A stretch of DNA of 64,000 nucleotides from Rhodospirillales bacterium (lineage in GTDB: Bacteria > Pseudomonadota > Alphaproteobacteria > Acetobacterales > Acetobacteraceae), in the NCBI GenBank assembly GCA_017304945.1, contig JAFKLG010000068.1, forward strand, positions 1-64,000, read 5' to 3'. How positions within the stretch are numbered: position 1 is the first letter of the stretch; each line of letters starts with the position of its first letter. Positions 7,139-55,430 of this stretch are shown one piece after another. The notes under the pieces were generated by a model. It was not told where the DNA came from, did no database searches, and saw nothing but the letters and a program-made list of their open reading frames with translations. Position numbers and translations under genes: made by a program.

Positions 7139-9025
7139 CTATCCTTCGGCGACATGGATGAACGTCTCGGCAGGCGTGAAGCCGCCGAGATCGAGACTGT
7201 TGCGATTCCCCCCCTCCGGCGTCGTTTGCATCACCGTGAAGCCCAGCTTCGCGTAGTGGTCCTTCACCATGCCGTTCTTCCTGGTCGGGACGTACTCGCC
7301 GACCAGCCGGCGGGCACCCAGCCGCTGCGCGTTGGAGGCGATCAGGTTCAGCGTGGTCGGCTCCACCTGGCGGCCCAGCACGCGGCAGCTCATCAGCCAG
7401 GTATCGATGTACAGGTCCTTGTCCGGCTGCAGCCGCCCGATGACGATCGCGATCACGCCGTTGTCGCCGAACCGGTCGGTAAGCCGCAACTGCAGCCCGA
7501 ACGCCGCCGGATCGGCCATGACGGCGAGCACGTCCTCCTCGGTGTAGCGCTTCGTCGTCAGGTTGAACTGGTTCGACTTGTTGATGAGCTGCACGATCCG
7601 CTGCAGGCCGATGCGGTCGAACGGCCGCACGATCAGCGTCATCTCCAGCCCGCGCAGATAGGCTTCGAGGTCGGTGGCGGAGGATTTCAGCGCCTCCCGC
7701 GCGCGATTGCCCTGGTATTGCGCGGTGCGCTCGCGGTCCTCCTCGGTGACCGCGAGGCCCTCGAAATAGCCGGCATCGGCAAGCGCGAGCGGGAAGGAGA
7801 CGGGATCGTCCGAAACCTCCGGCACCGCCACCATCGGCAGTTCCTGGCGCACCAGGTTCCGTTCGAACGGGTTGTCGTCGACGAACACCAGCGAGTCGAG
7901 GCCGATGTTCAGCTCCTGCGCGAGGCTGCGGATGTTGTCCGCCTTGTTCGACCAGTTGGCGACGAAGCCCGCAATGTCGCCGCGCCGCAGCACCATGTCG
8001 GGGTGTTTCTCGAACGGTTCGAGCGCGTTCGCCTCGTCGTTCTTCGAGCACACCGCAAGGATGATGCCGCGGCGGCCGAGTTCGCGCGCATAGTCCTGGA
8101 AGGCGACATAGGCCTCCCCCAGCGCGCTGCCCTGGCCGAGCGTGATGCCTTCCAGGCCGTCGTCGCCGATGACGCCGCCCCACAGCGTGTTGTCGAGATC
8201 GAGCACCAGGCACTTGAAGGAGCGGCCCTGCTTCGCCGCGGCCCAGCGGCCGACCAGGTCGCCGTAGAGCGGCGCGGCCGGCGGCGCGACTTCCTGCTTG
8301 GAACGGTGCCACAGCCCGGCATCGTGCCACTTGCCGATGCCATCGCGGGCCGCCCGCTCGTCCACGGCCAGGATATCGACGCCGTCTTCCTCGGCGGCGG
8401 CGCGCAAGGCCTCGTTCAATCGCGCGACGAAACGGAGGCGGGAGCCGGGCAGCCGGTGTTCGTTGTTGCCCAGCACCGACAGATGGATGGGCAGCGCGGC
8501 CTGCTGCAGGATCGGCGCCTTGAACGCCTCCCGCGCGAGTCTCCAGGTTTCCCGCACATGCGCGACTGTGTCCGCCAGCTGCGCGGCGGCGGCGTCTGCG
8601 TCCATCGCGGCGGTCACGCCGGCGGTCAGGTGATGGGCGTCGAACGCCAGCAGCACCGCGGTCGGCTGGAAGGCATGCAGCGCCGAGTCCGAGTCGGACA
8701 GTTCCTGCAGATACTGGCCGTAGTCGTTCTCATAGGTGTCGATCCAGATGCCGCGACGCAGGCCGGCGACGCGGATGGCCGGCAGCAGATGCGTCAGCGT
8801 GCTGGAGCCGAGGACCGCGAGGCGCACGGGCTTGGTCGCGAGGCCGGCGGGCGGGGTCGGGAACAGCCGGCGGGCCGCCTCGTCCAGTGCGTTGGTCAGC
8901 ACGAAATTGATGCGGCCATTCGCCAGCGCGACCGCCTCGTCCCAGGCGGCATTTGGATCGGACCCGAGTGCACGCAGCCGGGACCGCCAGTCGGGGATGG
9001 TGGGGAGCCAGTGGAGTTCGGTCAC
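7139..9025 (-). CDS. FkbH-like HAD-IIIC family protein
   Basis: The protein has 628 residues. The N-terminal domain (about 1-240) resembles the SGNH/flavodoxin-like part of FkbH relatives (VLGSSTLTHLLPAI). The HAD core has the nucleophile motif LDLDNTLWGG with Asp276, Asp278 and Thr280, plus VCSKNDEAN as motif II/III context. The C-terminal about 160 residues look like a GNAT fold (TLNLIASNAQRLGARRLVGE). FkbH proteins load glycerate from 1,3-bisphosphoglycerate onto an ACP to give glyceryl-ACP. The adjacent acp gene fits that reaction. No polyketide synthase or methoxymalonyl genes follow, so the product's destination, perhaps a surface glycan or lipid, is unknown. Confidence 0.85.
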   Translation of the reverse strand: MTELHWLPTIPDWRSRLRALGSDPNAAWDEAVALANGRINFVLTNALDEAARRLFPTPPAGLATKPVRLAVLGSSTLTHLLPAIRVAGLRRGIWIDTYENDYGQYLQELSDSDSALHAFQPTAVLLAFDAHHLTAGVTAAMDADAAAAQLADTVAHVRETWRLAREAFKAPILQQAALPIHLSVLGNNEHRLPGSRLRFVARLNEALRAAAEEDGVDILAVDERAARDGIGKWHDAGLWHRSKQEVAPPAAPLYGDLVGRWAAAKQGRSFKCLVLDLDNTLWGGVIGDDGLEGITLGQGSALGEAYVAFQDYARELGRRGIILAVCSKNDEANALEPFEKHPDMVLRRGDIAGFVANWSNKADNIRSLAQELNIGLDSLVFVDDNPFERNLVRQELPMVAVPEVSDDPVSFPLALADAGYFEGLAVTEEDRERTAQYQGNRAREALKSSATDLEAYLRGLEMTLIVRPFDRIGLQRIVQLINKSNQFNLTTKRYTEEDVLAVMADPAAFGLQLRLTDRFGDNGVIAIVIGRLQPDKDLYIDTWLMSCRVLGRQVEPTTLNLIASNAQRLGARRLVGEYVPTRKNGMVKDHYAKLGFTVMQTTPEGGNRNSLDLGGFTPAETFIHVAEG

Positions 9026-9076
9026 GGCGTCGATCCCATTCCGTGGGCACGGCAGGCGACGGTGGATCCGCCCTCG

Positions 9077-10711
9077 TCAGGCGGTCTCTAACAGTTGATC
9101 CCCGCGCTCTTCAACAACCATAGGCTGTCGGACTTCGTCCCGGACCAAGGCCGCGAGCACGTCATGCCAGCAGCCGATGTCGGCGGGCGTGTCCGGCCCG
9201 TCATGCGGTGGCAAAGGCGGCACTCGTCCGACCAGCCATCCGCCCGCCTCCCGGGTCACCATCCCGGCGGGGTGCGCCGCGTCGGGTCGGCAGAGCAGCA
9301 CCAGCCGCCGTCCGCGCATGGCGCGTCGGACGCGATCGAGCCCCGCATCCGCGCCGCGCCAAGCCTCGAGCTGGTAGGTGAAGCAGCGGCGGCCCGCTTG
9401 CAGCTCCGCCCGCAGCGCGGCGTCCACGCCCGCGAAGCAGGACTCCAGCATCCTCGCGAGCGCCTCCAGCGGCAGCGCCGCCGCGTCCAGCGGGCCGCGG
9501 CCGTCGAGCCCGGTGAGCCGGCTCAGCCGCGCCAGGTCTCCATCGCCGCGTTCCGCTCCCAGGCTGACGAACCTGTCCAGCAACCGGGGCAGCGGGTCCG
9601 GATCGGCGGCCGGGGCCCCGCGCAAGACGGGAGCGTCCGCCGCGGGGCTGGCCGAAGGGCCGTCCCGCTCCGCCTGGAGGTCGGCGGCGTCGGGGAACTG
9701 CCGCAATCCGAACGCCAGGGCCTTCTCCGCGGCCTCCACGTGGCCGGCGGCACGCAGGCTGCGCACCAGGCCCAGCATCGGCGCCGAGTCGTCGGGCAAT
9801 GCGGCACGGGCGGATTCGAACCCGGCGATGGCCTCCGCCCAGTCCCCCGCTGCCTCGGCCTGCCGCGCGCGCGCCAGGGTCAGGGCCGGGGAGGGACCGT
9901 GCCGGCGCTCCGCCTCGTCCAGCAGCGCCGCCGCTGCCGCGCCCTCGCCAAGGGCCATCGCCGCCGCGGCGCCGGCCGTGTAGCCCAGCGTCTGGCCGGG
10001 GAACCGCGCCCGCACCGACCGGCAGATATCCGCGACCAGCTCCCAGCGCGCGCCAGCCATTGCCTCGCCGACCGCCGCGACCAGGGCGGCGGAGTCGAGC
10101 AGTGCCGGTGTCAGCGAATCCAGCGCAGCGAGCCGCGCGTCGTCCGGGAAGCGCGCGCGTGCCGTGGCGATCCGCTGCGCGGCCTCCATCGGGTCCGGCC
10201 GCGCGGCCGCCACCTGTGCCGCGGCGATCCAGCTTGCCGGATCGTCCGGCAAGCGGGCGGTCGCCGCCGCCGCCATGTCATCGGCGGCATCGAACGCGCC
10301 ATGCGCCAGCAACGTCGCGACCGCGCCCAAATATCCACTCGTCGCGTTCGGCCGTGCCACCCGCAGCGCGGCCCAGGACTCCAGCGCGTCCAGCAACCGA
10401 CCCTGGCGGGAGGCTGCCGCGGCCTCCGCCTCGGCCAGCGCGGGATCGTCGGGGAAGCGCGCCCGCCCCGCGGCGACCACGATCGCCGCCTCCGCCGCGC
10501 AGCCGGTCTCGAGCAACAGCGCGGCGGCGCGCGAGAACGATTCTGAACGGCAAGGAAAATGCTGGCGCAGCAGGGCAAACCGCGCCAGCGCATCGGCGAC
10601 CCGTCCCTCCGCCCAGGCAGAAGCCGCGGCCGCGGACAGCGAATTGTAGGTCAGCGCCGCGTCCGCGACGTGCGACGGCGGCATGGAGCGGGCATCGGTC
10701 GACTGGCGCAT
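9077..10711 (-). CDS. TPR-like repeat protein of unknown function
   Basis: The protein has 544 residues if begun at the ATG at 10711 (MRQSTDARS); the ATG at 10684 is an alternative. Residues about 20-380 contain repeated Ala-rich helix pairs with recurring ARARFPDD / AARFPDDPA modules roughly every 34-36 residues, typical of degenerate TPR arrays. The last about 160 residues form a different domain containing CFTYQLEAWRGADAG and PPLPPHDGPD. The gene is 51 bp upstream of fkbH on the same strand, so a three-gene unit TPR-fkbH-acp is likely. TPR proteins with C-terminal extensions often occur with glycan assembly genes. That link is only an inference here. Confidence 0.6.
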   Translation of the reverse strand: MRQSTDARSMPPSHVADAALTYNSLSAAAASAWAEGRVADALARFALLRQHFPCRSESFSRAAALLLETGCAAEAAIVVAAGRARFPDDPALAEAEAAAASRQGRLLDALESWAALRVARPNATSGYLGAVATLLAHGAFDAADDMAAAATARLPDDPASWIAAAQVAAARPDPMEAAQRIATARARFPDDARLAALDSLTPALLDSAALVAAVGEAMAGARWELVADICRSVRARFPGQTLGYTAGAAAAMALGEGAAAAALLDEAERRHGPSPALTLARARQAEAAGDWAEAIAGFESARAALPDDSAPMLGLVRSLRAAGHVEAAEKALAFGLRQFPDAADLQAERDGPSASPAADAPVLRGAPAADPDPLPRLLDRFVSLGAERGDGDLARLSRLTGLDGRGPLDAAALPLEALARMLESCFAGVDAALRAELQAGRRCFTYQLEAWRGADAGLDRVRRAMRGRRLVLLCRPDAAHPAGMVTREAGGWLVGRVPPLPPHDGPDTPADIGCWHDVLAALVRDEVRQPMVVEERGDQLLETA

Positions 10712-10886
10712 CGGGCCATGGTTACACCGCGGGTGCGGGCCGGCGCCACGGCAACCCGGAAGACAGCCATCGTCAATCCGTCCCCAATCAATACCTAGGG
10801 GTAACGGAGGGGGATATCCCCAGCATTTTGTAGGTCGGGCCTTGAATCCCGTTGACCGATCCCGAACCCCAGGGTACGTCCGAGAT

Positions 10887-11597
10887 GTGACAACCGTCGA
10901 GTCCCACCCCTTCATTCGACTGCGCGGCCGCTCCTTCATGGCGCTGGTCCTCGCCCCGGAATTGCCGTTGGGCGAATGGCTGGCCGCATTGGATGCGCAG
11001 ATCGATCGTTCCCCCAGCTTCTTCGAAGGCCGGCCCGTGGTCGTGGACCTCGCCGGCCTCCCGCGGGAGCTGCCCGATGCCGCCGGCCTGCTGCAGGAGC
11101 TGGAGCGACGCGGCATCCATATCATCGGCACCGAAGGCGCGCACCCGTCCTGGCAAGGGATCGAGGCCTGGGGCCGTCCGCTGCCGAATGCCGGCAAGCC
11201 GGGACGCCCGATCGAGGTGCCCGACGAGCCGCGCGACACGTCGGCCGCCGCCGATCACGGCGGTGAACCGAACTCGCTGGTGATCGAGGAGCCGGTGCGC
11301 TCCGGCCAGTCGATCGTGTTCGAGCGGGGCGACGTCACCGTCCTCGGTTCGGTGGCCTCCGGTGCCGAAGTGATGGCCGGCGGCTCCATCCACATCTACG
11401 GCACGCTGCGCGGCCGTGCGATCGCCGGCATCGCCGGCAACGGCCGCGCCCGTGTCTTCTGCCGCAAGCTGCAAGCCGAACTCGTGGCGATCGACGGTGT
11501 CTACCAGACCGCCGACGACATGCCGTCTGCGCTGATCGGCCGGCCCGTCCAGGCCTGGCTCGACGGCGAGCAGATGAAAATGACCGCTCTCGACTGA
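10887..11597 (+). CDS. minC: Septum site-determining protein MinC
   Basis: The protein has 236 residues from a GTG at 10887 (VTTVESHPFIRLRGRS). No suitable ATG lies before the conserved N-terminal domain. The C-terminal beta-helix domain reads VTVLGSVASGAEVMAGGSIHIYGTLRGRAIAG, matching the MinC_C repeats that bind MinD. MinC inhibits FtsZ polymerisation away from midcell. It is followed 31 bp later by minD and then minE, the standard order. It is transcribed divergently from the TPR-like gene across a 175-bp spacer that must hold both promoters. Confidence 0.93.
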   Translation: MTTVESHPFIRLRGRSFMALVLAPELPLGEWLAALDAQIDRSPSFFEGRPVVVDLAGLPRELPDAAGLLQELERRGIHIIGTEGAHPSWQGIEAWGRPLPNAGKPGRPIEVPDEPRDTSAAADHGGEPNSLVIEEPVRSGQSIVFERGDVTVLGSVASGAEVMAGGSIHIYGTLRGRAIAGIAGNGRARVFCRKLQAELVAIDGVYQTADDMPSALIGRPVQAWLDGEQMKMTALD

Positions 11598-45311: not shown

Positions 45312-46019
45312 ATGGACAGCATCATCAATGGCGTCGCGCGCTTCCGCGACAGCGAGTTCCCGCGCCAGCAGGCGTTGTACCGGCACCTCGTGCATGCGGG
45401 GCAGAAACCGGCGGCGCTGATGATCTCCTGCGCCGACAGCCGCGTCGCACCCGAACACATCACGGCCTCCGGACCTGGCGAAATCTTCGTCTGCCGCAAC
45501 GCCGGCAACATCGTGCCGCCGGTCGCGCAGGTGAATGGCGGCGTGTCGTCCGCAATCGAATATGCGGTGCTCGCGCTGGGCGTGCGCGACGTCATCGTCT
45601 GCGGCCATTCCGACTGCGGCGCGATGAAGGCGATCCTGCAGCCGGACTCGCTGGCCGGCATGCCGAACGTGCAGGCATGGCTGCGCCACAGCGACGCCGC
45701 GCTGCGCATCGTGCAGGAGGCATATCCCGCCTCCGCGCAGGCGAACCTGCTGCACGCGCTGGCGATGGAGAACGTGGTCGCGCAGGTCGGGCACCTGCGC
45801 ACGCATCCCTCGGTCGCGGCCCGTCTCGCCACCGGCCAGCTCACGCTGCACGGCTGGTTCTTCCACATCGAAACCGGCACCGTCATGGTGTTCGACGGCC
45901 AGGCGAAGACGTTCATTCCCCTGCCGGAGAGCGGCGCCTTGCCGGTGGCGGTTGCGCCCGATTCGCGGCGATCGATGTCCGACCGCGTCGTCTCCGCCAT
46001 GGCGGAGGCGGCCCGATGA
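45312..46019 (+). CDS. Beta-class carbonic anhydrase
   Basis: The protein has 235 residues. Zinc ligands are Cys40 in ISCADSRV, His99 and Cys102 in CGHSDCGAMK. The Asp42-Arg44 dyad of the active type is present. VCRNAGNIVPP and GGVSSAIEYAV complete the family pattern. It is cytoplasmic. Its stop overlaps the SulP transporter start (ATGA), so the two are translationally coupled, implying CO2/bicarbonate exchange linked to anion transport. The 244-bp region before it is AT-richer around 45090-45120 and could hold the promoter. Confidence 0.95.
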   Translation: MDSIINGVARFRDSEFPRQQALYRHLVHAGQKPAALMISCADSRVAPEHITASGPGEIFVCRNAGNIVPPVAQVNGGVSSAIEYAVLALGVRDVIVCGHSDCGAMKAILQPDSLAGMPNVQAWLRHSDAALRIVQEAYPASAQANLLHALAMENVVAQVGHLRTHPSVAARLATGQLTLHGWFFHIETGTVMVFDGQAKTFIPLPESGALPVAVAPDSRRSMSDRVVSAMAEAAR

Positions 46020-47530
46020 GCGGCGGCAACCGCTTCCTGCCGGCACGCGACGTGCCGGCCTCGATCGTCGTCTTCCTGGTCGCCCTGCCGTTGTGCATGG
46101 GGATCGCGATGGCCTCGGGCATGCCGGCCGCGAGCGGCCTCGTCACCGGCATCGTCGGCGGCCTGCTGGTCGGCGTGCTGGCCGGCTCGCCGCTGCAGGT
46201 CAGCGGGCCGGCGGCCGGTCTCGTCGTGCTGGTCTACGAGATCGTGCAGCGGCAGGGCGTCGCCGGCCTCGCGGTGGTGCTGCTGATCGCCGGCGCCTTC
46301 CAGGTCGCCGCGGGCCTGCTGCGGTTCGGCGGCTGGTTCCGCGCCATCTCGCCCGCCGTGGTGCACGGCATGATGGCGGGCATCGGCATCCTGATCGTGC
46401 TGAGCCAGGCGCATGTGCTGATGGACGGCACGCCGGCGGCGGGCGGCATCGCCAACCTGCTCGCCTTGCCGGGGGCGATTGTCGGCATCGGGCCGCTGGA
46501 CGGCACCGGCGCGGACGCGGCGCTGGTCGTCGGCGCGGTCACCATCCTGGGCATGATCGGATGGGAACGCTTCCGGCCGCGCCGCCTGTGGGTGGTGCCG
46601 GGCCCGCTGGTCGGGATCGTAGCCGCGGTGGTGCTGACCGAATGGTCGGGCCTGGCGGTTCGCCATGTCGAGGTGCCGGCCGCCTTGGCGGACAGCCTCC
46701 GCCTGGTGTCGCCGGAGCAGGTCGGGCTGCTCGCCGATCCGGCGATCTGGGCCTCCGCCCTGGCCCTCGGCTTCATCGCCAGCGCCGAGACGCTGCTGTC
46801 GGCTGCCGCGGTCGACCGCATGCATGACGGTCCGCGCACCCGCTACGACCGCGAATTGCTGGCGCAGGGTGCCGGCAACCTGGTCTGCGGGGCGCTGGGC
46901 GCCCTGCCGATGACGGGCGTGATCGTGCGCAGTTCGGCCAATGTGCAGGCGGGCGCGGCGTCGCGCTGGTCCGCGGTGCTGCACGGCCTGTGGCTGCTGG
47001 TCTGCGTCGCGCTGGCGCCCTGGCTGCTGCAGCTGATCCCGACCGCGGCCCTGGCCGGAATCCTGCTCGTGTTGGGCTGGCGCCTGGTGAGCCTGCGCCA
47101 CGTGCGCGCCTTGCTCGCGCGCCATGGCCCGATCACCGCGGCGATCTGGGGCGCGACGGTGGTTGCGGTGGTGGCGGTGGACCTGCTCACCGGGGTGCTG
47201 CTGGGGCTGGCGCTCGCGCTGGTGGAGGTGGTGCCGCATCTGCGCCGGCCGGCCTTGCGGATCCGCGAGCATCGCACCGCCGAGGGCACCGCGATCCATC
47301 TGGCGGGGACGGCGACCTTCCTGCATCTGCCGCGCCTCGCACGTGCGCTGGAAACGGTGCCGGCGGACGGACCGGTCAAGGTGCGGGGGCGCGGCCTGCG
47401 CTTCCTCGATCACACCTGCGCCGACCTGCTGGAGGATTGGCGCCAGCAGCGGCGGGCGCGGGGACGCCAGGTCGAGCTGCAGGGCGGCCCGCTGGTCCGC
47501 TGCGGCGAAACCGGGTCCGGGCACGGATGA
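46016..47530 (+). CDS. SulP family inorganic anion transporter
   Basis: The protein has 504 residues from the ATG at 46016. The core begins PASIVVFLVALPLCMGIAMASGMPA and continues GSPLQVSGPAAGLVVLVYEIV, both SulP signatures. About ten to fourteen membrane helices run to about residue 400, followed by a short STAS-like C-terminal domain (TATFLHLPRLARALETVP and LRFLDHTCADLLEDW). SulP proteins carry sulfate, bicarbonate or dicarboxylates. Coupling to a beta-carbonic anhydrase favours bicarbonate. It is convergent with the methylase gene, with 19 bp between stops. Confidence 0.92.
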   Translation: MSGGNRFLPARDVPASIVVFLVALPLCMGIAMASGMPAASGLVTGIVGGLLVGVLAGSPLQVSGPAAGLVVLVYEIVQRQGVAGLAVVLLIAGAFQVAAGLLRFGGWFRAISPAVVHGMMAGIGILIVLSQAHVLMDGTPAAGGIANLLALPGAIVGIGPLDGTGADAALVVGAVTILGMIGWERFRPRRLWVVPGPLVGIVAAVVLTEWSGLAVRHVEVPAALADSLRLVSPEQVGLLADPAIWASALALGFIASAETLLSAAAVDRMHDGPRTRYDRELLAQGAGNLVCGALGALPMTGVIVRSSANVQAGAASRWSAVLHGLWLLVCVALAPWLLQLIPTAALAGILLVLGWRLVSLRHVRALLARHGPITAAIWGATVVAVVAVDLLTGVLLGLALALVEVVPHLRRPALRIREHRTAEGTAIHLAGTATFLHLPRLARALETVPADGPVKVRGRGLRFLDHTCADLLEDWRQQRRARGRQVELQGGPLVRCGETGSGHG

Positions 47531-47549
47531 GCGTGGCGGCGCGCCGTTT

Positions 47550-50500
47550 TCAGCCGGCGCGCCGCCCTCGGTCGAACGCCGCCAGGCAGAGCGCCGGAGC
47601 CTCCGGCCAGGACCGGTGGCTGAACGAGGCGAGCATGTGCGCATAGGCCGCGCGGGTGAGCCCGTAGGCCTGCGCCACCACGGCATCCATCTCCGCCCGC
47701 AGCGCCCATCGCGCCGCGGGCGCGGCGAGCACCGGCCACGTGCTGCGGCGCCGGCCGGTCTCAGCGGTCCACAGCGCCGCATAGCCGGCATGATTGCAGC
47801 AGAGCCGCAGCGCCGCGTCCGCGAGGAAAGCCGCCGCTGCCGCCTCGAGTGCAGGCAGCGGCAGGCTGCCGACCAGATACAGGCTGAGATGCGCCGCCGC
47901 CTTCTGCCGCACCAGCCAGTCGAAGGCGAAGCTGTTCATCAGCGCGCAGAGCAGCAGCGCCGCACCGATCGGGCGCTGCTGCGGCGTTCGCTCCACCACG
48001 GCGGTATGCCCGAACACCACGCCGGGTGGGGCGATCATGGCAATCGCGGTCCGCTCGTCGGTGCTGCGCGCGACGTCGCGGAAGGCGAGGCGATAGTGCC
48101 GCGCCGCCGCGACGGTGCGCGGCGACAGCGCGGCGGCCGGCACCGCGTAGCGCGGGCCGGACTGCCAGGCATCGGTGAACTGGTGGAAGCTCTTGCCCTC
48201 ATGCATGGGCAGGCCCTGCCCGACCGGCCGGAACGAGGCGGAATCCGCCGTCATGTGCAGGTCGGTGCCGAACCCGATCCCGCTTGCCGCGCACCAGGCC
48301 TCCAACCGCGTCGGTGCAGCGGGCGAGGCACTCAGCCGCGTTGGTGCGGCGCACGGGGCTGCCGTTCCGCGGTCCGGTCCGCCGCTGGCCGCGGCGCCGC
48401 GCTCCAGCCGCTGCAGCACCGCGAGGTCCGTCGCGCTGCGCAGCTCCGGCAGTGCGAGATGCGGGCCGCTTGCCGCCAGCAGCGCGGGGTCGAGCCGCAG
48501 CCGGCGGTCCGGCTGCGTCAGTTCGGCGGGATCCGTCAGGTAGAAGGCCGCGTCGATCGCCACGGTCGGGCCGGGCCGCCGCGCCACCACCAGGGCGAAT
48601 TTCGCGCGGCTGTCGATGTCGAACAGCTTGCGCCGGTTCTCGAACGACCAGCAGGTCTCCCACTGCGTCCGTTCCAGGAACAGCCGCCGCACGCCGGTGC
48701 TGCCCTCGTTGGCGTGGAAGGCGGAGGGCAGCAGCAGCCCGATCGCGCCCGCCGGTCCGGCGAGCTGCACGGCGCGTTCGGCGAACAGCCGGTAGGTGTC
48801 CAGGTTGCCGCCCGTGGCCTCGTGTCCCAGCGTCGCGCGCTGGTGATGGAACAGCCGGTCGGCGAGCGCCTTCTGTCGGGCGAACCCGGCGCGATAGGCG
48901 GCAAAGGCGGCGGCGACGGCGGGATCGGCGAGTACCCGCGCCTCGATCGCGGCGCGCGCCGCCTTGGTCGGCGCGTCCAGGATACGCAGGTCCCAGCCCG
49001 CCGCGAAATCCTTGGCGAGCGGCTGCAGCACGCCCCAGGGCGGGTTGCCGATCACCGCGTCGAAGCCGCCGGCCGCGAACACGTCGGGGAATTGCAGGTC
49101 GAAGGACAGCGCCTCCGCCCCGGCGGCCTCGAGCGCCGCCTGGGCTTCGGTGAGCCGATCCGGCCAGGCGCCGGTCTCCGCCACCGCCCGCGCCAAAGCG
49201 AGCCAGGCATCGTCGCCGTCGCGCCGCCGCAGCGCCGCCGCACCGGACCAGGCGCGGGCGAGCCGGCGCAGCGGCCCCAGCGTGTCCGCCAGCCGCGCGG
49301 CGGCCTGCTGCTTCAGCGCCAGATCCGCCACGTCGCGCCCCAACGTCGCGTCGAGCGCCGCGATCTCGGCCAGCGCCGTGTCGCGGACGGCAGCGAGGCG
49401 CGCCGTGACCCCGCGCGCCAGCAGCGGATCGAGCGGCTCGCCGCCCACCGGCAGCGTGGCCAGGTCGGCCAGGAACGGGCCGGCCAGCGAATCCCCCACG
49501 AGCAGCCGGTGGTCGAGGAAGGTGAGCGGCAGCCCCTCGGCATGCGATTCGAGCCAGAGCGACAGTTTCGCCAGCTCGACCGCGAGCGGATTGCGATCCA
49601 CCCCGTAGAGGCAATGCACCGCGACCAGGCGCCGGCACAGCGCGGCGGCGCGAGCCTCGGCGAGGGCGCCGCCGCCGCGGCTGGGCAGATAGGCGGCCAG
49701 GCTGCGATCGGGATCCGGCAGCGCGCCGATCCGCCCGCGCAGCAGCGCCGCGCGCGCGGTGAGGCGCAGGCGCTCCGCCGCCGAGGCCTCCGGCGCGGCG
49801 CGTTCCGCCTCCGCCGCCAGCATGTCGCAGCGGCGGCAGGCGGCATGCAGCGCCTCGCCCAGCACGCGGCAGGCCTCGACCAGGAAATGTCCGCTGCCGG
49901 TCGCCGGATCGAGCAGCTTGAGGGCGAGCAGCGCGGCCGGATGCGGGTCGTCGCGCGGGCTGCGTGCGTCGATCAGCGGGGCGAGGCTGCGCTCCACCAG
50001 CAGACGGACCAGCGGGTGCGGCGTGTAGAAGGCGCCGCTCGCCTTGCGGCCCAGGCCGGGCCGCAGCAGGAACCGTCCGGCCGGGATCGTCTCCACCGCG
50101 ACGATCCCCTCGGCGGTGCGCGCGTCCGCCGCGGGCACCACCGCCTCCAGCCGCCCCCGCCGCAGGCGGACCAGCTTGCGGTCGGCGATCGCCGGCTCGA
50201 GGTCGAGCAGGGCCTCGTAGACGCGGCCGAGTTCCTCGACGTCGAGCGCGCCGTACTGGATCCGCGCCCGCGCCTCGGCGCCGGGTTCGGTCCAGAGCAG
50301 CCGATCGAGCAGGCTCGCGACGCCGCGCTCGCCCCAGCGTGCCGCATCCAGCAGCGGCGTCGCGGCGGGCCCGAACAGCGCGCCCCCGAGTGGCGGGATC
50401 GACAGGTCGGCGCAGTCGAGCCCGTCGCGGACGGCGCGGAACGTCGCGCGCAACCCGTCCTCCAGCATGCGCGCGGTCTCCGCCCCCTGGTCCAGCACGC

Positions 50501-51452
50501 GGCGCGCGAGCGGGGCGAGGGCGCGCAGCGGCGACAGTCCCTGCTGCCAGGCCGGGGTCGCGACGAAGCCGAAGCCGCAGGCCGGATCGGCGGTGCTTTC
50601 GAGCCGGAACAGGAACAGCAGCCGGTAGACCATCACCAGCGCCTCCCGCCAGAGCTGCGCCGCGAGCGGGGCGGGTTCGCTGGGATCGGCGCCGACCGGC
50701 GTGCCCGCCGAAGCGGCGCCGGCCGCGTGCAGGGCGGCGTTCTCCGGGTGGTCGAGCACCGCCTGGACGAAGGTCTCCACCGCGGCGCGCGCCTGAAGCC
50801 GCAGCATGCCGGTGACCCGCACCTGGGCGAGGCGGGCGGCGTCGAGCAGGGCGGGGAGCGCGGCGAGACCGGCGGGCGCGAGCAGCGCGAGCAGCAGCCG
50901 CACGCCATCCGGGGCCGTCGGCGTCGCGCAGGCGGCGAGCGGCAGTTCGATGCGGGTGTCGGACCGGGCCGGGTCGGCGAGCAGCAGGCACAGCACCGCC
51001 CCATCGGTCAGCAGGCCGGCGTGCTCCCCCCGCGCGCGCAGGACGCGGAAGGCGGCCCGCCGCGGGCTGCCGCGATCCACGCGCGTGCCGCGGCCGGCGT
51101 CGGGCGCGAGGTCGGCCGCCGCGAAGCTGCGCAGCGCGGTCCCGTCGGCGGCATGGCTGAGCCAGCCGCCATCCTCCAAACCCTCCCGCGTCGGCACCGG
51201 CGGCTGCCGCCGCGGCCCGCGATACCCCGCGCAGGCCAGGATCGGGGCGAGTACCTGGGCGTGGAGGCGGGCCGGACCGGTTTCGCTGCCCAACCGGCGC
51301 AGCCCCGTCGCCACGCGCGCCCAACCGGCCGGCGGGGCGGGCAACAGGCGGCGGCGCAGCAATTCCTGCGGCAGGTCGAGCCGCAGGAAGGACTCGGTCA
51401 ACGCCGACCCGATCACCCGGCAGTCGGCGAGGTCCGGCAGCGCCCCGCTCAC
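47550..51452 (-). CDS. Eco57I/PglX-type N6-adenine DNA methyltransferase, large
   Basis: The protein has 1300 residues from a GTG at 51452 that overlaps the helicase stop (GTGA). An N-terminal domain of about 430 residues precedes LDVEELGRVYEALLDLEP and RKASGAFYTPHPLV. SAM motif I is LDPATGSGHFLVEA (about residue 512), then VDRNPLAVELAKLSLWL. Catalytic motif IV is IGNPPWG (about residue 800), the N-P-P-W form of adenine-N6 methylases. MHEGKSFHQF marks the start of the target-recognition half. No nuclease motif is visible. The architecture resembles DrmMI of DISARM class 1 and PglX. It probably marks self DNA for the partner helicase. Confidence 0.85.
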   Translation of the reverse strand: MSGALPDLADCRVIGSALTESFLRLDLPQELLRRRLLPAPPAGWARVATGLRRLGSETGPARLHAQVLAPILACAGYRGPRRQPPVPTREGLEDGGWLSHAADGTALRSFAAADLAPDAGRGTRVDRGSPRRAAFRVLRARGEHAGLLTDGAVLCLLLADPARSDTRIELPLAACATPTAPDGVRLLLALLAPAGLAALPALLDAARLAQVRVTGMLRLQARAAVETFVQAVLDHPENAALHAAGAASAGTPVGADPSEPAPLAAQLWREALVMVYRLLFLFRLESTADPACGFGFVATPAWQQGLSPLRALAPLARRVLDQGAETARMLEDGLRATFRAVRDGLDCADLSIPPLGGALFGPAATPLLDAARWGERGVASLLDRLLWTEPGAEARARIQYGALDVEELGRVYEALLDLEPAIADRKLVRLRRGRLEAVVPAADARTAEGIVAVETIPAGRFLLRPGLGRKASGAFYTPHPLVRLLVERSLAPLIDARSPRDDPHPAALLALKLLDPATGSGHFLVEACRVLGEALHAACRRCDMLAAEAERAAPEASAAERLRLTARAALLRGRIGALPDPDRSLAAYLPSRGGGALAEARAAALCRRLVAVHCLYGVDRNPLAVELAKLSLWLESHAEGLPLTFLDHRLLVGDSLAGPFLADLATLPVGGEPLDPLLARGVTARLAAVRDTALAEIAALDATLGRDVADLALKQQAAARLADTLGPLRRLARAWSGAAALRRRDGDDAWLALARAVAETGAWPDRLTEAQAALEAAGAEALSFDLQFPDVFAAGGFDAVIGNPPWGVLQPLAKDFAAGWDLRILDAPTKAARAAIEARVLADPAVAAAFAAYRAGFARQKALADRLFHHQRATLGHEATGGNLDTYRLFAERAVQLAGPAGAIGLLLPSAFHANEGSTGVRRLFLERTQWETCWSFENRRKLFDIDSRAKFALVVARRPGPTVAIDAAFYLTDPAELTQPDRRLRLDPALLAASGPHLALPELRSATDLAVLQRLERGAAASGGPDRGTAAPCAAPTRLSASPAAPTRLEAWCAASGIGFGTDLHMTADSASFRPVGQGLPMHEGKSFHQFTDAWQSGPRYAVPAAALSPRTVAAARHYRLAFRDVARSTDERTAIAMIAPPGVVFGHTAVVERTPQQRPIGAALLLCALMNSFAFDWLVRQKAAAHLSLYLVGSLPLPALEAAAAAFLADAALRLCCNHAGYAALWTAETGRRRSTWPVLAAPAARWALRAEMDAVVAQAYGLTRAAYAHMLASFSHRSWPEAPALCLAAFDRGRRAG

Positions 51453-54400
51453 GCCGGACCGCGCAGCAGCAGGCCGATCGGGGAGAGCTGCAGCGTCTCC
51501 CAGGCGAGGCGGCGCTGGCGCCCCTCGCTGCGGGCGCGCGCCAGGGCGAGCACCTCGTTGGCGGCCTGGCGCTGCGCCGGCGTGGCGGCCGGATCGGCGG
51601 CGAACAGGCCGAGACGCCGCAGCGGATCCGGATCCGTCCGCCAGTCCGGCGCCGCGGGTCCGGCGAACAGGTCGGCGAGGCGCGGCTGCACCGGCCCGCA
51701 GAGCGCGGCAGCGCGATGGCGCAGCCATGTCTCGAGCGTGCCTGCCTCCGCCGCGGCCGCGGCTTCCCGCTCCGCCCGCAGCCGGTCGGCGAGCTGCATG
51801 GCGGCGGTCCGGACAACGTGCTCCGCTTCGGGCAGGCGGCGCGTGGCCCAGCCGGCGAAGTGCCGCTCCCAGACCGTGGCGGGGGCCTCGGCGGTCGCCA
51901 CGGCGCGGCGCCGGGTGGCTGCGCCGTCGGCGGCGGCGGTGTCGAACCAGGCCGCCGCATCGTGCAGCACCGCCGGGGGCGCGTCCGGCCGCAGCCGCAC
52001 GGCGAGCACGCGCTGCCAAGCCAGGATCGACCCGGCATGCAGGGAGGCGGCATAGGTCACCACCGCCTCGACGCCGCCGTCGGAGCGGATCGCCGCCACC
52101 ACCGGTTCGGCCTGCCGCATGCGGTCGATGCAGCGCCGCACCAGCGGATGCGCGCGGCCGATCTCGGTCGGGTCGAGCGTCCCCCGCGCCGGATCCCAGC
52201 CGGCCAAGCCCGCGAGATCCGGTGCCCAGGCGGCCGGGACGCGCACCAGGCCTGGCTCCTCGGGCGCCCGCGCATGCACGGGCGGTTCGGCACCGCCTCG
52301 CCGCGGCGGCGGAGCGGACGGCACCTCGCCCTGCTCGCTCGCGAGGGCGGCGCGGACGAACCCGGCCAGGTCCACGCCCGCCGCGACGACGCGGCTGCGC
52401 CGCACCGCGCGTTCCGCCGTCTCGAGCCGCGCCGCGTCCGCCTGCAGCCCCTGGCCGGCCAACCAGCCGTGCCGCAGCGCCATGCGCTCGAACCCGTCAT
52501 AGGCTCGGTCGATCTCGCGCAGCAGGTCGCGGAACGCCGCCGCCTGGGACGCCTCCGCCGACCGGTCCAGGGTCGGCATCGCCGCGCGCGGGTCCGGAAA
52601 CAGCGAGGCCTGCGGCTCCGCCAGGGCCTGGTCTATGCGCCCATCCGGCCGCCTCGCGAACCAGCCGGAGCCCGGGGGGATCGGCGAGCCCTCCGGCCCC
52701 GGCGACAAGGCGGCCTGGGCTTCCGCGAACGCGTCGTCCGGTTCCGCCGCCGGCTGCCCCAGCGTGTCCGGCATGAAGGTCAGCGCCGCGCGGGCCTTCT
52801 CGTATTTGCCGATCAGCCGCAGCAGCAGCGCTTCCTCGAACGTGTCGGCGAGATACAAATAGCGGATCAGCGGCTCCGCCACCTGGCCATAGCGGTCGAT
52901 GCGGCCGTTGCGCTGCTCCAGCCGGTTCGGGTTGTAGGGCAGGTCGAGATGGATCAGGTCGCGACAGCGCCGGTGCAGGTTCAGCCCCTCGGCGAGCGAG
53001 TCGGTGCTCACCAGGATCACCTCGTCCGCCGAGGCGCATCGCTCCGCGGCGGCGGTGCGGGCCGCCTCGTCGTCGACGCCGCTGATCGCCAGCACCTCGC
53101 CGCCGATCCCGGCCGCGCGCAGGGCGGCACAGGCCGCATCCTGGCTGTCCGCGTATTCCGTGTAGACCAGCACGTTCGCGCGCGGCCGATCGGCGCGGAT
53201 GGCGCGCACCGCCGCCACCAGCCCGGCGAGCTTGGGATCCTGCGCCGCCGCCGCCTCGCCCAGCGCGATCAGCCCCTGCAAGGCGGTCGCCTCGCCGCCC
53301 GAGAGCCGCGCCGCGATGTCCTCGGCCTCCAGCGCGGCGAGTTCCGCCTCGTCCGCGGCCGGCAGCACGCCGTAGCGGGCGAGCTTGCGGCGATAGGCAT
53401 GCAGCGCGCGAGCGCGCTCCCGCGCTTCCGCGGCGTCGCCCTGCCCCAGGCGCGCCGCGACCACACGCAGCGTCGCGACGCAGGCGGCGATGGTGGAGAC
53501 CGACCGCTTCAGCAGCGCGACGAAGGCCAGCGCCTCCCCACCGCGCGCGGCGAGCCGCGGCAGCACCAGCGCCGACAGCGCCGCGTGGAAGCGCCGCACC
53601 GCCGGATGCGGCATGGCGATCGCCACCGGAACCACCTGCCGCGCGCGGAACAGCGGCGCGCCGGTGCGCCGGTCGCGCAAATGCTGCTTCAGCCGGCGCA
53701 CCACGTGGCGGCGATAGGCGGTGCCGTCCGGCAGTCCCGCCGCGTCCACCAGGCTGGGATCGAGCAGCGCCAGCAGGGAGCCGAAATGCGCGTCGTCCCC
53801 GTCATGCGGCGTGGCGGTGAGCAGCAGCAGCCCGTCGCCGGTGCGCGCCAGCACCTCGGCCAGGCGCCGGCGCTGGGTGACGTCGCGCGACGCCGCGGCA
53901 CCGACGCAATGATGCGCCTCGTCGATGATCACCAGGTCCCAGGCGGTGCGCTCGAGTTCCTGCAGCACGTGCTCCTGCTTGGCGAAGTCGAGCGCGGTCA
54001 GGCACAACGGCACCGCGTCGAACGGATTGCCGCCGCGCTCGCGCACCCGCCGCTCCGCCTCCAGCGCCGCGGCATGGGTGATCGGCTGGAAGCGCAGGTC
54101 GAAGCGCAGCCGCAGCTCCTGCTCCCATTGCCGCAGCAGCGCGCCGGCCGGCGCCACCACCAGGATGCGGTGTGCCCGCCGCCGCGCGATCAGATCGGAG
54201 GCGATCACCCCCGCCTCGCCCGTCTTGCCCAGACCCACACCATCGGCCAGCAGCAGGCGTGGCCGCGGCAGTTCCAGCGCGCGCAGCATCGGCACGAGCT
54301 GGTAGGGCTCGAGCGCCACCCGCCCCGGCGCGGCGGCGAGCAGCGTGCCCGCCCCCGGCACCTGGTCGAGCAGGCAGGCCATGTGGTGCAGCCGCCATTG

Positions 54401-54523
54401 CGCGAGCGGCTGCACCCGCGCGGGGTCCAGCGCCGTGGCCAGCGGCGTCACCGGCTCGTGCGGGGTCAGCAGCGTCCAGGTCAGGCCGCGCGCCGCGACC
54501 CGCTGCCCTGCCGCAATCTGCAT
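51449..54523 (-). CDS. SNF2-family DEAH helicase/translocase, DrmD-like
   Basis: The protein has 1024 residues. Walker A is ADGVGLGKTGEAG (about residue 95), with QWEQELRLRFDL, motif II IIDEAHHC (about 198) and motif III LLTATPHDGDD. The C-terminal RecA lobe has NVLVYTEYADSQDA, STDSLAEGLNLHRRC and NPNRLEQRNGRIDRYGQ. This is a bacterial SNF2/RapA-like translocase with a roughly 450-residue C-terminal extension. It is translated just ahead of the methylase gene with a 4-bp overlap, the order seen for drmD-drmMI. No restriction nuclease gene is adjacent. Confidence 0.85.
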   Translation of the reverse strand: MQIAAGQRVAARGLTWTLLTPHEPVTPLATALDPARVQPLAQWRLHHMACLLDQVPGAGTLLAAAPGRVALEPYQLVPMLRALELPRPRLLLADGVGLGKTGEAGVIASDLIARRRAHRILVVAPAGALLRQWEQELRLRFDLRFQPITHAAALEAERRVRERGGNPFDAVPLCLTALDFAKQEHVLQELERTAWDLVIIDEAHHCVGAAASRDVTQRRRLAEVLARTGDGLLLLTATPHDGDDAHFGSLLALLDPSLVDAAGLPDGTAYRRHVVRRLKQHLRDRRTGAPLFRARQVVPVAIAMPHPAVRRFHAALSALVLPRLAARGGEALAFVALLKRSVSTIAACVATLRVVAARLGQGDAAEARERARALHAYRRKLARYGVLPAADEAELAALEAEDIAARLSGGEATALQGLIALGEAAAAQDPKLAGLVAAVRAIRADRPRANVLVYTEYADSQDAACAALRAAGIGGEVLAISGVDDEAARTAAAERCASADEVILVSTDSLAEGLNLHRRCRDLIHLDLPYNPNRLEQRNGRIDRYGQVAEPLIRYLYLADTFEEALLLRLIGKYEKARAALTFMPDTLGQPAAEPDDAFAEAQAALSPGPEGSPIPPGSGWFARRPDGRIDQALAEPQASLFPDPRAAMPTLDRSAEASQAAAFRDLLREIDRAYDGFERMALRHGWLAGQGLQADAARLETAERAVRRSRVVAAGVDLAGFVRAALASEQGEVPSAPPPRRGGAEPPVHARAPEEPGLVRVPAAWAPDLAGLAGWDPARGTLDPTEIGRAHPLVRRCIDRMRQAEPVVAAIRSDGGVEAVVTYAASLHAGSILAWQRVLAVRLRPDAPPAVLHDAAAWFDTAAADGAATRRRAVATAEAPATVWERHFAGWATRRLPEAEHVVRTAAMQLADRLRAEREAAAAAEAGTLETWLRHRAAALCGPVQPRLADLFAGPAAPDWRTDPDPLRRLGLFAADPAATPAQRQAANEVLALARARSEGRQRRLAWETLQLSPIGLLLRGPA

Positions 54524-54614
54524 GTCTTGCCGGACCGCCGTCGTTCGGGGGAAACCCGCCGGGGCGGCACGACATCACGTCGCGATTGCCGTTCGGTTAA
54601 GGGAGGCAACGAAC

Positions 54615-55430
54615 ATGGCGGATCCACGCTTTGCCGGGAAAGTCGGACTGGTCGCGGGCGGCGCCTCGGGGATCGGCCGCGCGATCGCACGCGGATTGCA
54701 CGCAAACGGCGCGCAGGTGGTGGCGGGCGACCTGGACGCGGACGGTCTCGCCGCCCTGGCCGCGGAACTGGGCGAGGGCTTCGCCTGGACCCGCAGCGAC
54801 GTGACGCGGGAAGCCGATGCCGAGGCGCTGGTCGCGCTCGCGGCAACCCGGTTCGGCGGGCTCGACCTCGCGTTCAACGTCGCCGGTGCCTCCCGGCCCG
54901 GCTACATCGTCGACCTCGCCGAAGCCGATTGGGACTTCACGGTCGATCTCTGCCTCAAGGGCGTGTTCCTCGGCATGAAGCACCAGGCGCGACAGATGAT
55001 GCGCGGCGGGGCGGCGGGGCGCAGCGGCGCCGCCATCGTCAACATCGCCTCGCTGAACGCGCATGTGCCCATGCATGGCGGCTCCGCCTACGTGGCCGCC
55101 AAGGCGGGGGTCGAGATGCTGAGCCGGAACGGCGCGCTCGAGTTCGCGCCGTTCGGCATCCGGGTGAACGCGGTGCTGCCCGGCCTCGTGCAGACGCCGC
55201 TCACCCGCCGGCATTTCGACAACCCGGACGCGCATGCCGCGTTTCTGGAGCGCATCCCGCTCGGCCGCGCCGCCCAGCCGGAGGAGATCGCCGGCCCGGC
55301 GCTGTTCCTGGCGAGCCCCGACGCGGCCTATGTCTCCGGCGCCAGCCTGCTGGTGGATGGCGCCTGGGCGGTCAGCGGCTACCCGGACATGCGCCCGTTC
55401 CGCGGCCCGGTCGCCTGGAACGCGCGCTGA
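54615..55430 (+). CDS. SDR family NAD(P)-dependent oxidoreductase
   Basis: The protein has 271 residues. The Rossmann motif is AGGASGIGRAIA, then NVAGAS, and the catalytic triad region has NIASLNAH with Ser, YVAAKAG with Tyr and Lys, and PGLVQTPLTRRHF. VSGASLLVDGAWAVSG closes the core. Classical SDRs oxidise or reduce alcohols, keto acyl groups or sugars; the substrate is unknown. It is divergent from the helicase gene and separated from it by 91 bp. Confidence 0.92.
   Translation: MADPRFAGKVGLVAGGASGIGRAIARGLHANGAQVVAGDLDADGLAALAAELGEGFAWTRSDVTREADAEALVALAATRFGGLDLAFNVAGASRPGYIVDLAEADWDFTVDLCLKGVFLGMKHQARQMMRGGAAGRSGAAIVNIASLNAHVPMHGGSAYVAAKAGVEMLSRNGALEFAPFGIRVNAVLPGLVQTPLTRRHFDNPDAHAAFLERIPLGRAAQPEEIAGPALFLASPDAAYVSGASLLVDGAWAVSGYPDMRPFRGPVAWNAR

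What the first reader, a model, noticed from the sequence alone, without database searches (positions are those of the whole stretch)
47550..54523. Two-gene SNF2 helicase plus Eco57I/PglX-type methylase cassette, a candidate anti-phage system
The 1024-aa SNF2 translocase and 1300-aa adenine methylase overlap by 4 bp and stand alone between opposite-strand housekeeping-type genes. The pair resembles drmD-drmMI, which are specific to class 1 DISARM, but no drmA, drmB or drmC flanks them. Either this is a reduced DISARM remnant or an independent two-component defence or epigenetic system in which the helicase has no separate nuclease.
Basis: partly seen in the sequence, partly recalled or inferred. 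Interest (0 to 1): 0.72.

Follow-up and report, generated by a model that had tools for sequence, protein, structure and literature searches.

The report
ARMADA-derived helicase–methylase pair, lacking nuclease
Nearly every sequenced Rhodopila species keeps two genes, a DNA motor and a DNA-methylating enzyme, that look like the marking half of a phage-defence system whose cutting half has gone, which suggests that a weapon was turned into a permanent DNA-marking tool.

Summary
The two overlapping genes are real: a SNF2/RapA-type helicase (1024 aa) and a gamma-class N6-adenine methyltransferase (1300 aa). They are not DISARM leftovers: PADLOC's DrmD/DrmMI profiles score them 324/268 bits, against 968/1190 for a DISARM-type pair in another Acetobacteraceae genome. 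The nearest full-length relatives (41-50% identity, many phyla) are ArmA-ArmB-like pairs followed by a YprA/DruE-like helicase, the layout that a 2025 preprint calls ARMADA. In Rhodopila that third gene is gone: 28 of 33 genomes have no MZB-domain protein at all, yet 32 of 33 keep the pair. The pair is inherited vertically (12 of 18 tree splits shared with rpoB; 0.13 expected), sits among metabolic genes, is under purifying selection, and its catalytic motifs are intact. At equal core divergence its target-recognition region stays conserved, whereas it diverges strongly in the YprA-linked relatives; a C-terminal tail conserved in those relatives is eroded in most Rhodopila. Best reading: the methylation half of an ARMADA-type system, retained as a genus-core, solitary, motor-assisted adenine methylation module (epigenetic or maintenance role). 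Stand-alone defence is the main rival. Target motif, methylation and function are untested.

The parts
51449..54523 (-). SNF2/RapA-like helicase (ArmA/DrmD/BrxHII-like), 1024 aa, first gene of the pair
   Evidence: ORF; Pfam; PADLOC DrmD PDLC02621 324 bits, BrxHII PDLC02504 225 bits; AlphaFold model (pLDDT 77) closest to RapA (Foldseek 2.7e-21; hmmsearch 1.4e-55)
47550..51452 (-). Eco57I/PglX-type N6-adenine methyltransferase (ArmB/DrmMI-like), 1300 aa, second gene
   Evidence: ORF; Pfam Eco57I 2.2e-19; orthologue model (L084, pLDDT 85) matches CamA Z 25.7 and BrxX Z 24.5
51449..51452 (-). 4-bp start/stop overlap (GTGA), translational coupling inferred
   Evidence: exactly 4 bp in 19 of 28 loci
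54221..54241 (-). helicase Walker A GVGLGKT, residues 95-101
   Evidence: motif in 27 of 27 genus orthologues
53912..53923 (-). helicase DEAH box, residues 201-204
   Evidence: 27 of 27
52892..52915 (-). helicase motif VI QRNGRIDR, residues 537-544
   Evidence: 27 of 27
49887..49910 (-). methylase SAM-binding motif I DPATGSGH, residues 515-522
   Evidence: D515, P516, GSGH(519-522) invariant in A1
49035..49046 (-). methylase catalytic motif IV NPPW, residues 803-806
   Evidence: 27 of 27 in A1, 41 of 41 in A4
47823..48602 (-). probable target-recognition region (residues about 951-1210), conserved in Rhodopila, divergent in YprA-linked relatives
   Evidence: position from the CamA/BrxX/M.TaqI structural match (mapped); identity comparison
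47553..47570 (-). last 6 residues (1295-1300): place where relatives carry the tail DPYWDIPLN..LP.PVIDL, here lost
54708..55430 (+). flanking SDR-family oxidoreductase, divergent; conserved neighbour in 21 of 31 genus loci (not part of the system)
46016..47530 (+). flanking SulP transporter with STAS domain (not part of the system)

Best explanation
The pair is the ArmA-ArmB-like (helicase-methyltransferase) half of an ARMADA-type system that has lost its YprA-type helicase and has been kept as a vertically inherited, genus-core, solitary adenine-methylation module of Rhodopila and a sister Acetobacteraceae lineage. Proposed mechanism: the methyltransferase (MmeI/PglX/CamA-like gamma-class fold) reads one conserved, probably asymmetric DNA motif with its C-terminal TRD and methylates adenine in it; the co-translated RapA-like SNF2 motor works with it, moving along DNA or clearing bound proteins so that sites are reached. 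The methyl mark then serves an epigenetic or genome-maintenance role rather than protection from a co-encoded nuclease. Shown here: gene structure, homology, intact motifs, absence of the YprA/MZB partner, vertical inheritance, purifying selection, constant TRD, eroded tail. Inferred: catalytic activity, the motif, physical cooperation of the two proteins, and the biological role.
For: Pair in 32 of 33 Rhodopila genomes, the exception being 64% complete, and adjacent in 28 of 28 loci where both genes could be called. In 21 genomes the pair's tree shares 12 of 18 splits with rpoB (random mean 0.13, max 2); helicase and methylase distances correlate at 0.97. dN/dS between two species 0.19 (methylase) and 0.31 (helicase). 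NPPW, Walker A, DEAH and motif VI in 27 of 27 orthologues. A YprA/DruE-like gene lies beside the pair in 13 of 14 non-Acetobacteraceae loci with at least 7 kb downstream, and in 0 of 22 Acetobacteraceae loci. MZB domain absent from 28 of 33 genomes including the own. At matched core identity (0.70) residues 851-1200 are 0.52-0.68 identical per 50-aa bin in the Acetobacteraceae clade but 0.27-0.54 in the YprA-linked clade; TRD/core ratio 0.92 in 14 disjoint pairs vs 0.55 in 11, Mann-Whitney P = 6e-5. C-terminal tail present in 22 of 24 relatives, its core motif in 5 of 29 Acetobacteraceae. Neighbours are metabolic genes. Benchmark from passages of PMC4752239: 57% of orphan MTases but 9% of RM MTases are conserved in at least half of the species of their genus.
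Against: No methylome or activity data were found. The TRD contrast sets one vertically inherited clade against a multi-phylum, probably laterally transferred one, so part of it may reflect mode of inheritance and not loss of a defence role; the pairs share ancestry. Helicase and methylase evolve much faster than rpoB (61% vs 93% identity), unusual for a housekeeping system. Retention of a large ATP-driven motor is not explained by known solitary methylases such as CamA or CcrM, which have none (recalled). The ARMADA assignment rests on gene layout and DruE/MZB profile matches, not on a YprA tree or on the E. coli ArmA/ArmB sequences, which I did not have. FastTree support for the Acetobacteraceae clade is 0.91.
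Confidence: 0.55

Rival explanations
1. A still-active minimal anti-phage system: the helicase alone, or with an unlinked host nuclease, blocks or degrades unmethylated DNA while the methylase protects the host.
For: Close homologues outside Acetobacteraceae mostly belong to a probable defence architecture, one on a mobilizable plasmid. The pair evolves fast. The Rhodopila pair keeps the motor motifs, which a pure methylation role might not need.
Against: No MZB/YprA protein in 28 of 33 genomes; E. coli ARMADA lost protection when any of its four genes was deleted (PMC12458937, passages). Genus-wide fixation, vertical descent, metabolic neighbours and constant TRD are unlike a restriction system. 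No conserved D/E-x-K triple in the methylase N-terminus: best column pair 3 of 41.
Confidence: 0.25
2. A reduced or displaced class 1 DISARM.
For: Best PADLOC profiles are DrmD and DrmMI.
Against: Scores 324/268 bits vs 968/1190 for the L064 pair of the same family; NCBIfam DrmD 341 vs cut-off 610; the methylase tree groups it with the YprA/DruE-linked clade, apart from L064 and L062; no MZB (DrmB) protein in the own genome.
Confidence: 0.05
3. The helicase is the main player, a RapA-like factor acting on stalled RNA polymerase or nucleoprotein, and the methylase is an accessory specificity subunit.
For: RapA is the closest solved structure by fold and by profile.
Against: BrxHII defence helicases have the same RapA-like architecture (PMC12839542, passages), so the fold does not tell; the methylase keeps its catalytic motifs and co-evolves with the helicase at r = 0.97.
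Confidence: 0.08
4. A non-functional relic.
For: C-terminal tail eroded, third gene lost; the helicase frame is split in one genome, G026.
Against: Open frames, invariant motifs and dN/dS 0.19-0.31 across a divergent genus.
Confidence: 0.03

Closest known systems
ARMADA (ArmA-ArmB-ArmC, plus ArmD in Type II; Bell et al. 2025 preprint, PMC12458937)
   Same: BrxHII/RapA-like helicase followed by PglX-like methylase in the order ArmA-ArmB; nearest full-length relatives sit beside a YprA/DruE-like helicase with an MZB domain.
   Different: No YprA helicase beside the pair, nor in 28 of 33 genomes; vertically fixed in a genus; constant TRD; eroded C-terminal tail.
DISARM class 1 (DrmD, DrmMI, DrmA, DrmB, DrmC)
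   Same: Homologous helicase and adenine methylase; best PADLOC names.
   Different: Below the curated cut-off, outside the DISARM branch, no DrmB-type MZB protein in the genome.
BREX (BrxHII, PglX/BrxX)
   Same: Methylase model matches BrxX/PglX (Z 24.5); helicase architecture like BrxHII/RapA.
   Different: No PglZ in any of 33 genus genomes.
Solitary adenine methyltransferases CamA (C. difficile), CcrM
   Same: CamA is the best structural match of the methylase core plus TRD (Z 25.7); genus-core presence without a cognate nuclease.
   Different: Larger, with extra N-terminal domains and a constant neighbour motor; motif and role unknown. 29 of 33 genomes have a separate RAMA-domain protein, CcrM-like by name from recall.

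Membership tests
ARMADA | BrxHII/RapA-like helicase (ArmA) plus PglX-like methylase (ArmB), adjacent | tested here: met
   full-length homology (41-50%) to YprA-linked pairs
ARMADA | YprA-family helicase (ArmC) with DUF1998/MZB domain in the operon | tested here: not met
   none within up to 10 kb in 22 Acetobacteraceae loci; no MZB protein in the own genome
ARMADA | phylogenetic placement in the ARMADA clade of the YprA tree | not testable with these tools
   no YprA protein exists here to place
DISARM class 1 | DrmD passes the curated NCBIfam cut-off | tested here: not met
   341.3 vs 610 bits
DISARM class 1 | DrmB (DUF1998/MZB) present | tested here: not met
   PF09369: 0 matches in own genome; control rings in 8 of 14
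DISARM class 1 | DrmA and DrmC present | tested here: inconclusive
   not beside the pair; not searched by family in the whole genome
BREX | PglZ present | tested here: not met
   PF08665: 0 of 33 genus genomes; its control rings in only 2 of 14
Type IIG restriction enzyme | N-terminal PD-(D/E)xK nuclease with E-x-K motif | tested here: inconclusive
   no conserved D/E-x-K column (best 3 of 41); N-terminus barely covered by the structural match
Solitary (orphan) methyltransferase | no cognate nuclease gene adjacent | tested here: met
   a remote nuclease cannot be excluded
Solitary (orphan) methyltransferase | conserved in at least half of the species of the genus | tested here: met
   32 of 33 genomes
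Solitary (orphan) methyltransferase | active methylation of a motif, often incomplete at regulatory sites | not testable with these tools
   no methylome data

The most novel reading that the evidence does not exclude
A solitary epigenetic methylation system of a new build: an ATP-driven SNF2/RapA-like motor obligately paired with a PglX-type adenine methyltransferase, derived from ARMADA by loss of the YprA helicase and made a genus-core regulator or genome-maintenance factor with a frozen target site. If so, a defence system's self-marking half has been exapted whole, motor included.
Probability: 0.4. Interest if true: 0.75.

Novelty: new variant of a known kind. Interest (0 to 1): 0.58.

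Why it matters
ARMADA is newly described, and what its helicase ArmA and methylase ArmB do apart from the YprA helicase is open. Rhodopila is a natural experiment: about 30 species keep ArmA-ArmB-like genes without that partner beside them. It offers a way to assign the modification half of such systems, and a case, readable in the sequence (constant recognition region, eroding tail), of a defence module turned into a resident methylation system. Rhodopila globiformis DSM 161 is a named strain with a genome in the collection (L076), so the prediction can be tested with one long-read run.

Tried and rejected
DISARM remnant: rejected on scores, tree and missing MZB protein. BREX part: no PglZ in 33 genomes. 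Hma (PADLOC HmaA 166 bits): no partner genes by Pfam among the ten neighbours scanned. Accessory effector downstream as in the YprA-linked loci: the six genes downstream of the pair that were tested in Rhodopila loci with a Pfam match are CBS-BON, cellulase, GyrA, luciferase-like, galactarate dehydratase and glycosyltransferase genes; a seventh had no Pfam match. Replacement of a missing CcrM: rejected, a RAMA-domain protein is in 29 of 33 genomes. Nuclease hidden in the methylase N-terminus: no conserved D/E-x-K column; the fold of the N-terminal 190 residues was not settled, since most structural matches start at about residue 190. Anomalous GC of the pair (0.75-0.78 vs 0.71) was not pursued as a sign of recent transfer because the pair is vertically inherited. 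A first gene caller missed genes in lower-GC loci and was replaced. The rpoB comparison used wrong ORFs for some genomes and is superseded.

Dropped before counts: methylase tree, proteins under 1000 aa (67 sequences kept); rpoB comparison, 21 of 33 genomes with long enough sequences; L112 and L133 (a MAG labelled Nitrosovibrio, 56-58% identical to the window's methylase, probably foreign sequence) were left out of the clade counts; the distant loci L136-L151 (24-32% identity) were not examined for a YprA-like gene (one search covered L072-L135); L045, L057 and L060 lack the methylase on their contig (NA). One strong conflict between the rpoB and pair trees was found; I ascribe it to the truncated rpoB of G025 without testing that. 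Results against my reading: L095 has 10 kb downstream without a YprA-like gene although outside Acetobacteraceae, and L130 (6.5 kb) has none either; the retained-tail motif was counted 19 of 24 by the strict pattern and 22 of 24 by eye, the other two being absent or unlike at that place.
Full report
1. What is there. The helicase (51449-54523, minus strand, 1024 aa) and the methylase (47550-51452, minus strand, GTG start, 1300 aa) overlap by the four bases GTGA. Pfam finds Helicase_C, ResIII, SNF2-related and DEAD in the first and Eco57I in the second. On either side lie opposite-strand genes for a SulP transporter and carbonic anhydrase, and for an SDR oxidoreductase and an alpha-amylase. The window is on contig 54 of a 5.29-Mb draft genome (98.9% complete) whose genus is Rhodopila (Acetobacteraceae), a name taken from R. 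globiformis DSM 161 and several Rhodopila MAGs among the closest loci of the genome-contig scan.

2. Not DISARM. PADLOC's best models are DrmD (324 bits) and DrmMI (268 bits), but NCBIfam's DrmD cut-off is missed (341 vs 610 bits). A DISARM-type pair of another Acetobacteraceae genome (L064) scores 968 and 1190 bits on the same PADLOC models. The own genome has no MZB/DUF1998 protein, hence no DrmB, and no Rhodopila genome has a PglZ (0 of 33).

3. A genus-core pair. Both genes are found in 32 of 33 Rhodopila genomes; the one without is 64% complete. In all 28 loci where both could be called they are neighbours in the same order, 19 with exactly the 4-bp overlap. The divergent SDR gene is conserved in 21 of 31 loci; genes downstream of the pair differ between subclades and are metabolic or housekeeping where tested. 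In an even draw of 120 Acetobacteraceae genomes, full-length orthologues occur in 3 genomes of 2 genera. For 21 genomes the concatenated pair tree shares 12 of 18 splits with rpoB (0.13 by chance, maximum 2 in 500 shuffles); helicase and methylase distances correlate at 0.97; mean identity is 0.61 for the pair and 0.93 for rpoB. dN/dS is 0.19 and 0.31 for the one species pair tested. NPPW, Walker A, DEAH and motif VI are present in 27 of 27 orthologues.

4. Relatives: an ARMADA layout. Full-length relatives (41-50%) occur in cyanobacteria, Myxococcota, Acidobacteriota, Planctomycetota, Chloroflexota and others. There the pair is followed by variable genes (Schlafen AlbA_2, GmrSD, AIPR, AAA_21, UvrD/GajB-like, IrrE-like) and a helicase of about 1780 aa with DEAD and MZB domains, best matched by DruE profiles. 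This is the layout that Bell et al. (PMC12458937; abstract, section 5 and passages seen) call ARMADA: BrxHII/RapA-like ArmA, PglX-like ArmB, YprA-like ArmC. They report that the order helicase-methylase-YprA occurs in many archaea and cyanobacteria, and that the four-gene E. coli Type II system fails when any gene is deleted. With at least 7 kb downstream, 13 of 14 non-Acetobacteraceae loci have the YprA-like gene and 0 of 22 Acetobacteraceae loci do. MZB proteins occur in 5 of 33 Rhodopila genomes; at least one belongs to a separate YprA-helicase-methylase cluster, in G006. The methylase tree makes the Acetobacteraceae sequences (support 0.91) sister to the YprA-linked clade. Loss of the YprA gene on the Acetobacteraceae stem is the simplest reading, since DISARM and YprA-first ARMADA relatives also have such partners; gain in the sister clade is not excluded.

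5. Two signatures of changed constraint. (a) At matched core identity of 0.70, the region that structural matches to CamA, BrxX and M.TaqI place at the TRD (residues about 951-1210) is 0.52-0.67 identical per 50-residue bin in Acetobacteraceae and 0.34-0.43 in the YprA-linked clade; in the latter it does not track core identity. Over disjoint pairs the TRD/core ratio is 0.92 (14 pairs) against 0.55 (11 pairs), P = 6e-5. (b) The YprA-linked enzymes end in a conserved tail, DPYWDIPLN..LP.PVIDL (22 of 24 by eye, 19 of 24 by strict pattern); its core survives in 5 of 29 Acetobacteraceae enzymes, the others ending at many different points, including the window's. I read (a) as a fixed target site and (b) as a lost contact with the missing partner. 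The second is inference: no complex was modelled.

6. Structure. The model of an orthologous methylase (L084, 1172 aa, mean pLDDT 85) is a gamma-class N6-adenine methyltransferase with a C-terminal TRD; best matches are CamA (Z 25.7, rmsd 5.4 A over 496 residues) and BrxX (Z 24.5). The helicase model (mean pLDDT 77) matches RapA best. BrxHII helicases share the RapA architecture, including an inactive nuclease-like domain (PMC12839542, abstract and passages). No conserved D/E-x-K pair lies in the methylase's first 260 aligned residues. That PglX has its methyltransferase N-terminal and its motif-recognition domain C-terminal is from passages of PMC11341690.

7. Interpretation. Fixation in a genus, vertical descent, absence of the partner that E. 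coli ARMADA needs, non-defence neighbours and a constant TRD fit a solitary methylation module better than restriction. Blow et al. (PMC4752239, passages) found 57% of orphan but 9% of RM methylases conserved at genus level. The retained motor sets this apart from known solitary methylases and is the most interesting open point. Rhodopila also carries a RAMA-domain protein in 29 of 33 genomes, so the pair is not its only candidate epigenetic enzyme. I found no description of such a pair without a YprA partner, or of Rhodopila restriction-modification, in the paper searches (listings) or within PMC12458937; subscription papers and most preprints are not held.

Noticed in passing
L065 (G006:C4:1-18000) and L063 (G054:C2:183500-203000): Complete YprA-first clusters (YprA-like about 1710 aa, helicase, methylase) matching the described ARMADA Type I order; G006 carries one in addition to its core pair.
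   Followed up: partly
L091, L096, L109, L110, L118, L120, L126 downstream of the methylase: The slot between methylase and YprA-like helicase (or after it) holds interchangeable probable effectors: Schlafen AlbA_2/HATPase, GmrSD, AIPR, AAA_21, UvrD/GajB-like, IrrE-like.
   Followed up: partly
L182 (NZ_AP017561.1:173242-201534): A mobilizable Pseudanabaena plasmid carries helicase, Phd/VapC toxin-antitoxin, methylase, 3'-5' exonuclease and a YprA-size DEAD/DEAH helicase in a row, beside a DUF2357 gene.
   Followed up: no
L112 and L133: A MAG labelled Nitrosovibrio sp. Nv4 encodes a methylase 56-58% identical to the window's, probably Rhodopila-like sequence in the wrong bin; L087 is labelled Asaia bogorensis, yet a contig of the same length and content is held as a Rhodopila-genus genome (G031, L058).
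   Followed up: no
L061 (G026:C98), helicase at 8405-11333: The helicase frame is split into two ORFs (670 + 359 aa) in one genome; real frameshift or assembly error not settled.
   Followed up: partly
L098:6457-8532: In a Sulfopaludibacter MAG a RecQ-like helicase of 691 aa follows the pair instead of the YprA-like helicase (the contig ends soon after).
   Followed up: no
window 47000-55000: G+C of the pair is 0.75-0.78 against a window mean of 0.71.
   Followed up: no
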